A stretch of DNA of 5,526 nt, from positions 1 through 5,526 of the forward strand of contig JALOPK010000242.1 of NCBI GenBank assembly GCA_025453925.1, given 5' to 3'. Every line of letters starts with the position of its first letter. The stretch's first letter is position 1. The notes below the pieces were generated by a model. It ran no database searches. It had not been told where the DNA came from and worked only from the letters and a program-made list of their open reading frames with translations. The position numbers and the translations under genes are program-made. Below, one piece after another: positions 1 through 4,654 of the stretch. This DNA is from Candidatus Eiseniibacteriota bacterium. GTDB taxonomy: Bacteria > JAFGKV01.

Positions 1-1043
1 CCCTTGGTGAAGAACACGACATTGGCCTTCACACCGGGGCTGTAGGGCGTGAACGTGCCGCGGGGAAGGCGCAGCACGGTATGCAGATCGCAGTATTCCG
101 TGACGATCTTGAACACTTCGCCCGCCTGGTCCGCGAACAGGCAATTGTCCGGCAGCACCACCGCGGCCCGGCCGCCGGGCTTGAGGATCGTCAAGATGTG
201 CTGGACGAAGTTGAGCTGCTTGTTCGAGGTGGCGATGGTGAAGTCGTCGCGGGTCGGCGCCTGGTTCGCACCCTTGGTGCCGAAGGGCGGATTGGTCAGC
301 ACCACGTCGAAGCGCCGGCCGGTGGGCGGATCGTAGATGGAATCGCCCAGCGCGATATGGGGCGTGATGCCGTGCAGGTAGAGGTTCATGAGGGCCAGGC
401 GACGCGGGCGTTCCACCAACTCCTCGCCGAAGAAGGTCTCCTCCTTGACTCGTTTCGCCACATCGCGGTCCAGGGCGCCACGGCTTTCTCCTACCAGCCA
501 CACATAGGTCGCTACCAGGAATCCTCCCGTGCCCACCGCCGGGTCGCAAATGGAGAACTCCGCCCGGGTGCGGGGGTCGGGCTTCATGCAGCGCACGATG
601 GTCTGGATCAGGATGCGCGGCGTGAAGTATTGCCCCGCGCCCTTCTTGCCCTCACTGGCCGCCTTCTCCAGGAGCCCCTCGTATGCCGCGGCCTTCACGT
701 CGACCTCAAGGGAGGTCCATTCCGTCTCGTCGATGAGCGAGACCAAGCGCTTCAAGTTCACCGGGTTGTTGAAGCGGCTCTGGGCCCCGGCGTAGATGTC
801 GCCCAGGATGCCGTGTGTTCGACCGAGGGTGCGCAAGACATCAATGTAGTGATCGATGAGATCGGTGCCGCTGCGGTCGCGGATTCCGGGCCACGCGCAG
901 CCTTCGGGGATGTCGATCCCCCGCTCGTCCGCCATTTTGAGGAAGAGCAGGTAGGTGATCTGCTCGATGTAGTCGCCGTAGTCGATGCCGTCGTGGCGCA
1001 ACGTGTGGCAGAATCCCCAAAGTTTCTGAACGATGTCGGTCAT
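1..1043 (-). CDS. hsdM: Type I restriction-modification system DNA methyltransferase subunit HsdM (3' end cut by window edge)
   Basis: Modification subunit of a Type I R-M complex. With HsdS it transfers a methyl group from S-adenosylmethionine to adenine N6 in the recognition site, and the M2S core is also needed for HsdR to cleave. About 347 codons are visible; the family is usually about 480-540 residues, so the C-terminus lies left of the window. The N-terminal helical domain starts MTDIVQKLWGF. The family signature GAGQYFTPR is at residues 135-143, motif I DPAVGTGGF at 167-175 (SAM binding) and catalytic NPPF at 251-254. The visible end reads NVVFFTK, a usual HsdM strand. The start at 1043 is chosen because the N-terminal motif begins there and GAAGG (plus 1051-1055) lies 7 nt upstream. 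It is the third gene of the operon, 64 nt after the small gene. A REP-like hairpin occupies that gap. The family call is firm; sequence specificity cannot be read without HsdS. Confidence 0.96.
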   Translation of the reverse strand, partial: MTDIVQKLWGFCHTLRHDGIDYGDYIEQITYLLFLKMADERGIDIPEGCAWPGIRDRSGTDLIDHYIDVLRTLGRTHGILGDIYAGAQSRFNNPVNLKRLVSLIDETEWTSLEVDVKAAAYEGLLEKAASEGKKGAGQYFTPRILIQTIVRCMKPDPRTRAEFSICDPAVGTGGFLVATYVWLVGESRGALDRDVAKRVKEETFFGEELVERPRRLALMNLYLHGITPHIALGDSIYDPPTGRRFDVVLTNPPFGTKGANQAPTRDDFTIATSNKQLNFVQHILTILKPGGRAAVVLPDNCLFADQAGEVFKIVTEYCDLHTVLRLPRGTFTPYSPGVKANVVFFTK

Positions 1044-1050
1044 CAGAGAG

Positions 1051-1055
1051 CCTTC
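1051..1055 (-). promoter_or_regulatory. Ribosome binding site of hsdM
   Basis: GAAGG on the minus strand, 7 nt before the ATG at 1043. It lies between REP copy A and the start codon, so the hairpin at 1069-1087 sits about 13 nt upstream of it and could affect its accessibility. That last point is inference. Confidence 0.55.
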
Positions 1056-1067
1056 ATGCGGGGGTGG

Positions 1068-1095
1068 GCACGGCGGAGACCGCCGTGGCTACAGC
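1068..1095 (-). repeat. REP-like palindromic element, copy A (between the small gene and hsdM)
   Basis: Single copy of the element that is tandemly repeated at 1743-1872. On the minus strand it reads GCTGTAGC, then a hairpin. Arms are plus 1069-1076 and 1080-1087, 8 bp (CACGGCGG with CCGCCGTG), with the 3-nt loop AGA (plus strand). The GTAG tetranucleotide is plus ctac at 1089-1092, one base from the stem. GTAG followed by a GC-rich palindrome is the form of REP elements mobilised by REP-associated tyrosine transposases (RAYTs); no RAYT gene is in the window. The element starts 12 nt after the stop codon of the small gene. It has no U-tract, so it is not a typical intrinsic terminator. Its 28 nt are identical to copy C (1791-1818). 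Confidence 0.85.
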
Positions 1096-1107: not shown

Positions 1108-1716
1108 TCATGGGCGGTCCTTCGTGTGGGCGAACAGGGCCACATCGGCGGCAACGGGCGAGTAGAACACCTGGAGCTCCTTCGGCGTGCAGCCCAACGC
1201 CTCGGCAAGGCGCTGCGTCGTGATGTTCTTCCATTCCTTGTCTCGCCACCTGTGCTGGTAGAGGACAAGAGTGTCGCCTGGCCGAAGAATGCCGAACAGC
1301 TCGGCGATCCTGCCCGGGCGGATGTGTTTGGCGCGGGTGGAGCCGCTTTCGGGTTCGAGACCGGTATCGGGGTCGAGGAAGAGGATGATCGGGTCGGGCG
1401 AGCTCCTGAACCAGGCGCGCACTCCCGCGATGACGTCGTCGAACCAGGCGATACTGTCGCCCTGATAGGGCCTGCGGTAATGAGAGATCTCGATGCCGGC
1501 CCGCGCAGCCAGACGATCGATGTCATCCAGGTCGCGGAAGTGCTCGATGACCTCCTCGGGGAAGTCCGCGCCGTCCGGTTCGGCGAATTCAAACCTCGTC
1601 TCGTTGTCGGTGAGAAGCCAGATCCAGAGGACCGCAGCGCCATTCTCCCTGGCCAATCGCACAAGCGTTGCCCATTTCAGAAGATCACGGTTGTCCCCGT
1701 ACCATTCATGTCGCAT
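1108..1716 (-). CDS. Uncharacterised protein embedded in a Type I R-M operon, 202 residues
   Basis: I do not recognise a named family and assign no function. From the start MRHEWYGDNRDLLKW the protein is soluble-looking, with no signal peptide or membrane segment. Conserved-looking features are GDNRDLLKW (residues 7-15), a hydrophobic strand running into LDPDTGLEP (114-122), RPGDTL (145-150) and LYQH (152-155). The alternation of strands and helices, with an acidic DPD turn after a hydrophobic strand, would fit a Rossmann-like fold. That is a guess from pattern, not a match. The start at 1716 is preferred because GGAGA (plus 1724-1728) lies 8 nt upstream. The frame stays open to 1794, but the extra 26 residues would be encoded by REP sequence. 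The gene follows hsdR by 162 nt and precedes hsdM by 64 nt, on the same strand, so it is probably co-transcribed. Both flanks carry the same direct repeat, which suggests a mobile or inserted cassette. It could be an accessory nuclease, a regulator or a separate defence factor. Confidence 0.8.
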   Translation of the reverse strand: MRHEWYGDNRDLLKWATLVRLARENGAAVLWIWLLTDNETRFEFAEPDGADFPEEVIEHFRDLDDIDRLAARAGIEISHYRRPYQGDSIAWFDDVIAGVRAWFRSSPDPIILFLDPDTGLEPESGSTRAKHIRPGRIAELFGILRPGDTLVLYQHRWRDKEWKNITTQRLAEALGCTPKELQVFYSPVAADVALFAHTKDRP

Positions 1717-1742: not shown

Positions 1743-1872
1743 GTACGGCGGGGACCGCCGTGGCTACAGCAGGGAGCGGGAGGAAGCATTGCACGGCGGA
1801 GACCGCCGTGGCTACAGCGCGCGGCAGGAGGAAGCATTGTACGGCGGGGACCGCCGTGGCTACAGCAGGGAG
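1743..1872 (-). repeat. Tandem array of three REP-like palindromes, 48-bp period
   Basis: Three copies fill most of the gap between hsdR and the small gene. The 26-nt cores are at 1745-1770 (B), 1793-1818 (C) and 1841-1866 (D). Each carries a perfect 7-bp inverted repeat, ACGGCGG with CCGCCGT, around a 3-nt loop (GGA in B and D, AGA in C), plus the GTAG head on the minus strand (plus ctac at 1764, 1812 and 1860). The 22-nt linkers (1771-1792 and 1819-1840) share GGAGGAAGCATTG at 1779-1791 and 1827-1839. The unit is therefore about 48 bp and was amplified in tandem. The GTAG side always faces the hsdR end. Copy D starts 12 nt after the hsdR stop. REP hairpins inside operons are known to stabilise upstream mRNA and to tune downstream gene dosage, and that is the likely role here if there is one. 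Confidence 0.88.
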
Positions 1873-1878
1873 GCAGGG

Positions 1879-4560
1879 TCATGCGGCGATGGCCTCGTTG
1901 AGTGTGTGAATCATGGATACCAGCTCTGACTCGCCGAACACGCGGCGGGCAGCGGCCCAGCCGCCGGCGTCAGAGAGGGCAGGCTGGTAGTCGAAGTCTT
2001 CGCGGTCAAGGGACAAGGTCTTCTGCATGACGGCTTGGATGCGCGCCAGCCACTTCTCCTGATCCGGTGTGAACGAGAGATTCAGGGTCAGCCGCGCGAA
2101 GGCACGCTCGACGCGCTCCGCGGCAGTCAGGAGCGGAGCCTCCTCGTCAGCAGCGTGCTTCACCATGGAGATGATATCGACCAGGGCTTTGTGGTACCGC
2201 AGCTCGTGGACCTTCTGCAGCGTCTCCACGCTGAACCGGTAGCGGCTCTGCGCCAACTTCTCGCGCAATTCACCCAGGGCGGCCGCGCTCCAGTCGCGGG
2301 GCCGGTCGAGAAGGATCCGCAGGGCTTCGATGTGGGCGGGATTCTCCCGCACGAACCGTGAGAATGCCACCAGGTAGTCCTCGGGCTTGTACTCCTGCCC
2401 CATGGTGTCGCGAATGAGCAGGGCCGAGGTCACGGTATCGCCATACTCATCTGCCTTCCAGAACTCACGGGCGGGGCGTGGGTAGTCCACCAGCAGATGC
2501 TGGAACTCGGGAGTGCGGAGCAGCTTCATCGTGCCCACGAAGTCGTCGGCCAGGGCCTGGCGCAGGCCTCGGCCGAACCGCGCTACGTCGCCCTGCGGGA
2601 GGTACGCGGCGAACAGCGTGCGGGCATTGGATGCCATGCCGCGGTCGATGCGGTGGAGCCGCTTGATCAGGCAGGCGGTGTTGTACTCGCGATCGCGATT
2701 GGCCCAGATATCCTCGATGACCTCAACGATGGTGCGGCTGGGCTGGTCGGGAGGGCCAATCGTGATGCCGGTCGCACCTCTGAAGTAGGCCAGCAGCGTG
2801 CCGTCGAAGCAGTCGAACACCGTGAAGTAGGGCTTGTCGGTGAACGTCTCGCCCTTGCGGGTGCCGCGGCCCAGCATCTGCTCGAACAGGATGCGCGACT
2901 TCACGGGGCGGAGGAACACGATGAACTCCAGATCCGGGATGTCGACCCCCGTGCTCAGGAGATCGACGGTGACCGCGATGCCGGGCTTGGCCAGGTTGCG
3001 GAACTCCCGGATCCGCTGCAGCGGCCGGTCGACACGGCCCGTGATCTTGCACACGAAATCATCGCCACGACCGAATACGTCGCGGGCGAGGTCGGCGAGA
3101 GCGTCGGCGTGGGACATGTGGGGAAGGTCGTTCACCGCGAAGATCAACGTCTTGGGGAACCGGCCGAACTCCTGCTCATGTGCATCTGCATAGCGCTTGA
3201 CCTCCTCCAAAACGAGCCGGTTCGATTGGGGCGCCGTGATGCGCGTCTCGATGTCGGAGGTATCGAACGTCCGCTCGTCTTCCAGGGTGTCCATGGCGGA
3301 GAGGCCGGTGTGGGGATCGACGACCTCCACGTGATCGCCCTCCCGAAGGAAGATCCCGTGCATGCGCACATCCGAACGAACGGTGACCGCGTGGTAGTCA
3401 ACCAGGCGTCCGTCCTGCACCGCCCGTTCGTAGGGATAGTCGAACACCTTGTGGACGAAGTACGCCGAGGTGTGGGAGGCGGGCGTTGCCGTGAGCCCGA
3501 TCTTGATGGCATCGAAGTGATCCAGGGTGCTGCGCCATACGGAGAGCTCCTGGGAGGTGTAGCCTCGGTGGCACTCGTCGGCGATGACCACGTCGAAGGC
3601 ATGGATCGGGATGGAGAGTCGGTCGGCGTCGTCATCGATGGCCTCGTCGCCCGCGCCGAAGATCGCCTGGCGGCCCAGGATGTTGATGGCCATGCGCTGG
3701 ATCGTGCACACGTAGACGAACGCGTGGCCCGGCTGGGGATCGGTCAGATAGTGGCCCGGCATCACCTTGGGATCGAAGGTCTCGCCCTCGCCGAAGTCGT
3801 CGCGGTGGAATCTGCTGCTGTAGACCTCGTAGATCCGGTCGAACTTCAGCCCCGCCTCCGGCTCGAATGCGGCGAACGCTCGCACCGCCTGGGCAGCCAA
3901 GGCGCGGCGGTCCACCAGAAACAGCACTCGCTTGGCCACGCCCGACTTCATGAGGCGGTAGGTCTCGCTGACCATGGTCATGGTCTTGCCCGTCCCAGTG
4001 GCCATGGCCAGGAGCATGGCGCGCGTGCGGTCGGCAATAGCGGCTTCGATGGCGGCATTGGCCTCCTGCTGGTGGGGCCACAGACGCTCGATGTTGATGG
4101 GGATGCCGGCGAGGGTGGTGAGGGAGCCTTCCAAGTCCCGCGCCAGCAGCTCCCGGAGGGCGTTGGGCGTGTGGAACTCGGCGATGCGGCGGGAGCGGTT
4201 ACGAGGATGGCGCGCATCCCGGAACCAGATCTCCTCACCGCTGGTCGAATACAGAAACGGGCAGCGAAGACCCTCGAAGTTGAAGCCCGACTGATGCAGG
4301 CCGCGGGCGTAGCGCTCCGCCTGGGAGAGCACCTCCTGGGCGCCGAGGGTGACCCGCTTCGCCTCCACTACTGCCTCTATCCTCCCGTCGAGCCAGAGGA
4401 CATAGTCCGCGGGGCCATTGGCCGTCTCGTGCTCCTCAGTTCGGAATGGGCCCGCCATGGGCCGCACGCCAGCGGGGGCCAGCGGCCACCCGCACGCATC
4501 CAGCCGAGGGTCGATCCGCGCCTCGCGGGTCAGCCGTTCGGGTTCGGGCAGGTCAGACAT
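1879..4560 (-). CDS. hsdR: Type I restriction enzyme, restriction (R) subunit HsdR
   Basis: ATP-dependent translocase and endonuclease subunit of the Type I complex. It binds the M2S core, reels in unmethylated DNA and cuts far from the site. The product is 893 residues, close to the shorter EcoEI/EcoAI-type R subunits and shorter than EcoKI HsdR (about 1170). The N-terminal PD-(D/E)xK nuclease domain shows D52 and E66-A-K68. The two RecA-like motor domains show Walker A ATGTGKT (187-193), DECH box (328-331), TATP motif III (357-360), motif V region DLLSTGVDIP (533-542) and motif VI QMLGRGTR (561-568). The helical C-terminal region, about 620-890, would contact the methyltransferase. All key residues are present and the frame is unbroken. 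The start at 4560 keeps the usual N-terminal region (ID at 16-17 through ACGW at 22-25). There is no clear Shine-Dalgarno before it. It is the first gene of the operon, downstream of a strong dyad. Confidence 0.96.
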   Translation of the reverse strand: MSDLPEPERLTREARIDPRLDACGWPLAPAGVRPMAGPFRTEEHETANGPADYVLWLDGRIEAVVEAKRVTLGAQEVLSQAERYARGLHQSGFNFEGLRCPFLYSTSGEEIWFRDARHPRNRSRRIAEFHTPNALRELLARDLEGSLTTLAGIPINIERLWPHQQEANAAIEAAIADRTRAMLLAMATGTGKTMTMVSETYRLMKSGVAKRVLFLVDRRALAAQAVRAFAAFEPEAGLKFDRIYEVYSSRFHRDDFGEGETFDPKVMPGHYLTDPQPGHAFVYVCTIQRMAINILGRQAIFGAGDEAIDDDADRLSIPIHAFDVVIADECHRGYTSQELSVWRSTLDHFDAIKIGLTATPASHTSAYFVHKVFDYPYERAVQDGRLVDYHAVTVRSDVRMHGIFLREGDHVEVVDPHTGLSAMDTLEDERTFDTSDIETRITAPQSNRLVLEEVKRYADAHEQEFGRFPKTLIFAVNDLPHMSHADALADLARDVFGRGDDFVCKITGRVDRPLQRIREFRNLAKPGIAVTVDLLSTGVDIPDLEFIVFLRPVKSRILFEQMLGRGTRKGETFTDKPYFTVFDCFDGTLLAYFRGATGITIGPPDQPSRTIVEVIEDIWANRDREYNTACLIKRLHRIDRGMASNARTLFAAYLPQGDVARFGRGLRQALADDFVGTMKLLRTPEFQHLLVDYPRPAREFWKADEYGDTVTSALLIRDTMGQEYKPEDYLVAFSRFVRENPAHIEALRILLDRPRDWSAAALGELREKLAQSRYRFSVETLQKVHELRYHKALVDIISMVKHAADEEAPLLTAAERVERAFARLTLNLSFTPDQEKWLARIQAVMQKTLSLDREDFDYQPALSDAGGWAAARRVFGESELVSMIHTLNEAIAA

Positions 4561-4618: not shown

Positions 4619-4654
4619 TGGTGGCACTATTCTAATGTGAGAATAGTGCCACCA
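4619..4654. promoter_or_regulatory. Perfect 15-bp inverted repeat upstream of hsdR, candidate operator
   Basis: Arms 4619-4633 and 4640-4654 are exact reverse complements around the 6-nt loop AATGTG. The inner arm is AT-rich (ACTATTCT) and the outer arm GC-rich (TGGTGGC). It lies 59-94 nt upstream of the hsdR start. On the minus strand, TAGAAT at 4634-4629 (across arm and loop) is one mismatch from a -10 box, which would place a transcript start near 4622; I see no good -35. There is no T-run after either arm, so an intrinsic terminator is unlikely. A dimeric repressor site over the R-M promoter is the simplest reading, but no regulator gene is in the window. The repeat itself is certain; its role is inferred. 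Confidence 0.6.

What the first reader, a model, noticed from the sequence alone, without database searches (positions are those of the whole stretch)
1743..1872. Tandem REP-like hairpin array inside a Type I R-M operon
Three GTAG-headed hairpins at an exact 48-bp period lie between hsdR and the next gene, all in one orientation. REP elements are normally singlets or inverted pairs (BIME-like). A direct tandem array with a conserved 22-nt linker inside a restriction operon is unusual. It could set the ratio of restriction subunit to downstream methyltransferase by mRNA processing or partial attenuation.
Basis: partly seen in the sequence, partly recalled or inferred. Interest (0 to 1): 0.62.

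Follow-up and report, generated by a model that had tools for sequence, protein, structure and literature searches.

The report
Tandem REP hairpins in restriction operon
Four short, nearly identical DNA hairpins between the genes of a restriction-modification system turn out to be members of a known class of bacterial repeat (GTAG-type REP elements), here lined up head to tail at a spot where a sister species carries a similar line-up, so they are mostly ordinary but may tune the neighbouring genes.

Summary
In detail: three GTAG-headed hairpins (minus strand, 8-bp stem, 3-nt loop) repeat at exactly 48 bp between hsdR and a 202-aa gene.

The REP reading is right in kind. The host is a draft genome whose same-genus relative (G001) is a Candidatus Fermentibacteria MAG. 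It holds about 50 relatives of the element, mostly with compensated stems, and a gene above the cut-off of the REP-associated transposase (RAYT) model. That RAYT's flanks carry another REP type, so the cognate transposase is not pinned down.

Genome-wide the family sits as inverted pairs or singlets. Direct copies closer than 120 bp occur only at this junction, and in G001 only at its orthologous hsdR-hsdM junction, alternating there with a second GTAG hairpin. The window copies resemble that locus more than any other copy in their own genome. So the array looks inherited and locally duplicated, with the 202-aa gene now splitting it.

Direct tandem REP arrays are already published (P. fluorescens SBW25). 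Ratio-setting is untested; no intrinsic terminator is present. I favour a passively transcribed array that at most tunes the 3' end of the hsdR message.

The parts
1840..1863 (-). REP copy 1: GTAGCCACGGCGGTCCCCGCCGTA; GTAG starts 15 nt after the hsdR stop codon
1816..1839 (-). linker 1 (CAATGCTTCCTCCTGCCGCGCGCT), shares CAATGCTTCCTCC with linker 2
1792..1815 (-). REP copy 2: GTAGCCACGGCGGTCTCCGCCGTG
1768..1791 (-). linker 2 (CAATGCTTCCTCCCGCTCCCTGCT)
1744..1767 (-). REP copy 3: GTAGCCACGGCGGTCCCCGCCGTA
1069..1092 (-).
1879..4560 (-). hsdR, EcoEI-like type I restriction subunit (ResIII, EcoEI_R_C, HSDR_N)
1108..1716 (-). 202-aa gene of unknown family, present here and not found in the sister species' locus or genome; low-confidence model with only weak methyltransferase-like matches
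3..1043 (-). hsdM (N6_Mtase, HsdM_N), cut by the end of the contig

Best explanation
The hairpins are GTAG-superfamily REP elements of a family confined, among the three genomes of the phylum searched here, to one genus of Candidatus Fermentibacterota. An ancestor had this REP subtype in the hsdR-hsdM spacer before the two species split. It multiplied there by local tandem duplication of REP plus linker, not by fresh insertions from the genome pool. In this genome a 202-aa gene now lies between copies 3 and 4. The array is co-transcribed with hsdR (inferred from gene order). Most likely it acts, if at all, as a passive set of stable RNA hairpins at the 3' end of the hsdR cistron, slowing 3'-to-5' decay or slightly damping translation near the stop codon, and not as a dedicated switch. 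Shown: family membership, copy numbers, orientation pattern, shared locus in two species. Inferred: duplication history, insertion of the gene, and any RNA effect.
For: Family: 51 pattern matches in the own genome, 38 in the same-genus genome and 0 in the same-family genome G002, with reversed-pattern controls of 1, 3 and 0. Stem changes are compensated, with two pairs changed on both sides. RAYT-model genes over the cut-off: G000 C309; G001 C117 and C207; that of C207 sits among about 20 GTAG hairpins, mostly of other types. Inheritance and local amplification: same-family neighbours up to 120 bp apart are head-to-head in 13 and 9 pairs, and direct only at the hsdR-hsdM junction, in both genomes. 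Window cores match the sister locus at 21-23 of 24 while no other copy in the own genome lies within 3 mismatches. hsdR fourfold sites are only 65% identical. Homology between the loci stops at REP copy 4 (window 1-1094) and resumes 7 nt past the hsdR stop. RNA hairpins. REP RNA roles near stop codons: PMC12306157.
Against: The RAYT that moves this family was not found: the own RAYT is flanked by a GTAG-1-like repeat. The genomes are draft MAGs, the own one 82% complete. REP singlets are thought to be dead remnants (PMC3116915), yet these are strikingly uniform, which may point to selection or gene conversion. The 15-nt distance from the hsdR stop is not kept in the sister species (29 nt to its first hairpin). 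No RNA data exist.
Confidence: 0.66

Rival explanations
1. The array is a selected RNA device that sets the amounts of restriction and modification subunits, by partial attenuation (for example Rho-dependent) or by processing that stabilises the hsdR part of the message.
For: Codirectional GTAG hairpin arrays occur at the orthologous junction of two species whose fourfold sites differ at 35%. Cores are better kept (20 of 21 non-loop bases for copy 4) than fourfold sites predict (P about 0.001). The spacers are C-rich relative to G, more than hsdR on average. REP copy 1 starts 15 nt after the hsdR stop, within the distance reported to damp translation in E. coli (PMC12306157). Intercistronic stem-loops set subunit ratios in the C. 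cellulolyticum cip-cel operon (PMC4423207 abstract).
Against: No terminator-like site. A similar C-over-G excess is reached inside hsdR. Number, spacing and hairpin type differ between the species, and the stop-to-hairpin distance is 15 against 29 nt. Gene conversion among copies would also keep the cores alike.
Confidence: 0.2
2. Recent RAYT-driven insertions: several REPs landed next to each other because the spacer or an existing REP is a preferred target.
For: The own genome has a RAYT; [quoted passage not shown]
Against: Linkers 1 and 2 are copies of each other (units 41/48), as duplication gives. The window subtype (CACGGCGG stem) is absent elsewhere in the own genome within 3 mismatches but present at the sister locus. 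The typical dispersed form here, the head-to-head pair within a longer palindrome, is absent from the window.
Confidence: 0.1
3. A protein-binding DNA array (for example nucleoid protein or gyrase sites, as for BIMEs), acting on the chromosome and not on the message.
For: 8-bp palindromes at a regular 48-bp period; known roles of BIMEs (established knowledge).
Against: 48 bp is not a whole number of helical turns at 10.5 bp; in the sister species the spacing is 114 and 87 bp. Only four copies of this subtype are seen in the genome.
Confidence: 0.04

Closest known systems
GTAG-tagged REP superfamily (Di Nocera et al. 2013, PMC3733652)
   Same: Unpaired GTAG at one end, 8-bp stem (most published families 6-9), 3-nt loop, stem subfamilies by compensated changes, intergenic, many head-to-head hetero-dimers (here mostly with a 3-nt gap).
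   Different: A family in Candidatus Fermentibacterota; [quoted passage not shown]
Tandem REP arrays of Pseudomonas fluorescens SBW25 (Bertels and Rainey 2011, PMC3116915)
   Same: Evenly spaced one-type direct arrays (like the window) and alternating two-type direct arrays (like the sister locus).
   Different: SBW25 alternation has 112 and 72 bp spacing; here 48 bp, or 34 bp between the two types, inside a restriction operon.
REPINs (inverted REP doublets)
   Same: Elsewhere in this genome the family occurs as inverted doublets.
   Different: The window copies are not doublets.
RAYT (REP-associated tyrosine transposase, NF047646)
   Same: Genes over the curated cut-off in the own and sister genomes.
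   Different: None found flanked closely by this REP family.

Membership tests
GTAG REP superfamily | short stem-loop with unpaired GTAG at one end | tested here: met
   All four copies: GTAG, 8-bp stem (7 in two copies), 3-nt loop
GTAG REP superfamily | many copies dispersed over the genome | tested here: met
   51 matches in G000 against 1 for the control; over about 30 contigs. Moderate, below the >100 usual in REP-rich genomes
GTAG REP superfamily | intergenic location | tested here: met
   No sampled copy lies inside a predicted gene; gene calls are rough
GTAG REP superfamily | stem changes compensated across copies | tested here: met
   2 of 8 pairs changed on both sides among 12 copies; CACGCCGC, CACGTCGC and CCCGGCGC stems elsewhere
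GTAG REP superfamily | cognate RAYT with REPs of the same family beside it | tested here: inconclusive
   RAYT-model genes present but flanks carry other GTAG hairpins; own genome 82% complete
REPIN | two inverted REPs forming one hairpin | tested here: not met
   Window copies are all in one direction; pairs occur elsewhere in the genome
Intrinsic terminator | G+C hairpin followed by a run of U | tested here: not met
   No site in the window
CRISPR array | identical repeats with differing spacers | tested here: not met
   The two spacers are near copies; related repeats are dispersed in the genome

The most novel reading that the evidence does not exclude
The hsdR-hsdM junction of this genus keeps a direct array of transcribed REP hairpins under selection: an RNA element built from mobile repeats that tunes the balance of restriction and modification, with hairpin type and number free to change as long as the array remains.
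Probability: 0.14. Interest if true: 0.55.

Novelty: new member of a known kind. Interest (0 to 1): 0.32.

Why it matters
It extends GTAG REPs, with compensated stem subfamilies and RAYT-model genes, to Candidatus Fermentibacterota. It also gives a clean case in which the same operon junction, and no other place found for this family at short spacing, carries a direct REP array in two diverged species. If the array tunes a restriction operon, it would be a testable example of mobile repeats put to use in a defence system.

Tried and rejected
Chance repeat: rejected. Mis-binned contig, suggested by the strict search that found only four copies: rejected, since the same-genus genome carries the same operon and repeat and the family is spread over the own genome. 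CRISPR: rejected, spacers are copies and related repeats are dispersed. Intrinsic terminators: rejected. Known Rfam RNA: none at the gathering score; sub-threshold hits only. Coding minisatellite (48 = 16 codons): considered because a plus-strand frame stays open over the array, rejected because the offset between the two hairpin types in the sister species (34 bp) is not a multiple of three and the copies elsewhere are inverted pairs. Naming the 202-aa gene: Pfam, NCBIfam and PADLOC empty, no plasmid or phage relatives, single-sequence model of pLDDT 64 with poor matches. Exact family pattern in other species: none in genome contigs for the strict core (records close to the own genome may be left out there); three viral contigs for a looser one, not followed up. 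Literature on REPs and hsd genes: nothing relevant by title or abstract.

Full report
What is there. The window is a whole 5,526-bp contig (C266) of a 3.9-Mb, 82%-complete draft genome. On the minus strand run hsdR (4560-1879), a 202-aa gene (1716-1108) and hsdM (1043 to the contig end). Between hsdR and the 202-aa gene lie three copies of GTAGCCACGGCGGTCYCCGCCGTR at a 48-bp period, and a fourth lies between the 202-aa gene and hsdM. Each folds into an 8-bp stem (7 bp in copies 1 and 3, where the last base is A) with a 3-nt loop. Units 1 and 2 with their linkers agree at 41 of 48 positions.

Is it a REP? Searched strictly, the element exists only in this contig, which looked like a refutation. 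With stem changes allowed, the genome holds about 51 copies and the same-genus genome G001 38, while the same-family genome G002 holds none (reversed controls 1, 3 and 0). A model built from 12 copies gives the same picture. Stem variants are compensated (CACGGCGG, CACGCCGC, CACGTCGC, CCCGGCGC). Sampled copies are intergenic (rough gene calls). This is the make-up of GTAG-tagged REPs as defined by Di Nocera et al. 2013 (PMC3733652). G001 is named Candidatus Fermentibacteria bacterium Zod_Metabat.355 (taxonomy), so the window comes from a relative in that genus.

Transposase. The own genome has one gene above the cut-off of the NCBI REP-associated tyrosine transposase model (C309), and G001 has two (C117, C207). 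G001 C207 sits among about 20 GTAG hairpins, mostly of two other types. G001 C117 and G000 C309 are flanked by repeats like GTAGGAGCGGCTTCAGCCGCGA, by eye from the printed flanks. None is flanked closely by the GTAGCC family, so its mobiliser is unknown.

Arrangement. Counting family neighbours within 120 bp, the own genome has 13 head-to-head pairs (offset 27-29 bp), no tail-to-tail pair and two direct neighbours; the two direct ones are the window array. G001 has 9 head-to-head pairs and two direct neighbours; the two direct ones are at its hsdR-hsdM junction. Four looser direct neighbours (148-257 bp) occur elsewhere in the own genome. The census is by pattern and may miss decayed copies.

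Orthologous locus. G001 carries hsdR (89% amino-acid identity) and hsdM without the 202-aa gene. Its 349-bp spacer holds three GTAGCC copies (two with a GCAG head) and four of a second hairpin, GTAGGGGAGGGC..GCCCTCCC (one with a GTAC head); in three units the second type precedes the first by exactly 34 bp. All point the same way as in the window. Nucleotide homology runs from hsdM up to and including copy 4 (window 1-1094) and from hsdR to 7 nt past its stop (1872). Copy 4 and its G001 counterpart both lie 25 nt before the hsdM start. Copy 4 keeps 20 of 21 non-loop bases with that counterpart, where fourfold sites of the genes agree at 64-65% (binomial P about 0.001, not corrected for the choice of site and blind to gene conversion); the 25-nt leader after it agrees at 13 of 25. 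The simplest history, inferred, is an ancestral REP at this junction, local tandem duplications in each lineage, and arrival of the 202-aa gene between copies 3 and 4 here (or its loss in G001; no outgroup decides).

How it may work. No intrinsic terminator or sigma-70-like promoter is found in the window (the scan is simple). Hairpins behind a stop codon can protect upstream mRNA or damp translation: a 2025 study of REPs cites earlier work in which E. [quoted passage not shown] Copies 1 and 4 both start 15 nt after a stop codon, just inside that limit, but the first hairpin of G001 is 29 nt away. I therefore favour a passive array with at most a mild 3'-end effect (0.66 for the whole statement), over a dedicated ratio-setting device (0.2).

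Known or new. Evenly spaced single-type and alternating two-type direct REP arrays are described in P. fluorescens SBW25 (PMC3116915), and clusters of REPs repeated in tandem with flanking DNA are described by Di Nocera et al.. The element is a new member of a known kind. What stands out is its confinement, as a short-spaced direct array, to one operon junction in two species.

Noticed in passing
window 4619-4654: A perfect 15-bp inverted repeat about 60 nt upstream of hsdR contains ACTATTCTNNNNTTAGAATAGT, a palindrome with 68-69 matches per strand (up to 2 mismatches; most sites match on both strands) in the own genome and 78 in G001, with 0 in G002 and 0 for reversed controls. Of 21 copies looked at, none lies inside a predicted gene, 7 lie between convergent and 1 between divergent genes (rough calls), and the bases outside the core often pair although they differ between copies. 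Function unknown: terminator, operator or another hairpin repeat. May deserve its own study.
   Followed up: partly
L108, L112, L114, L145 and others: Many head-to-head REP pairs of the family lie inside a longer imperfect palindrome, GGTTGAGAGTAC before and GTACTCTCAAACAAG after the pair, with another hairpin upstream; about 90-140 bp are alike between loci. The window lacks it.
   Followed up: partly
L058 (G001 C207): RAYT-model gene at 2791-3279 within about 20 GTAG hairpins of at least two types, including direct runs at 37-40 bp spacing.
   Followed up: partly
window 1108-1716: 202-aa gene between hsdR and hsdM without any family match; only weak relatives (26-28% identity) in three of 290 searched genomes.
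   Followed up: partly
G001 C130 12304-13503: A specificity-subunit (Methylase_S) gene of G001 lies about 4.5 kb after hsdM, with an ATPase gene and others between; none was found in the incomplete own genome.
   Followed up: no
L067 (G002 C200): The other genus of the family has a strong RAYT match flanked by GTAGGTCGGGTTAGC..GCGTAACCCGAC hairpins, a different REP type.
   Followed up: no
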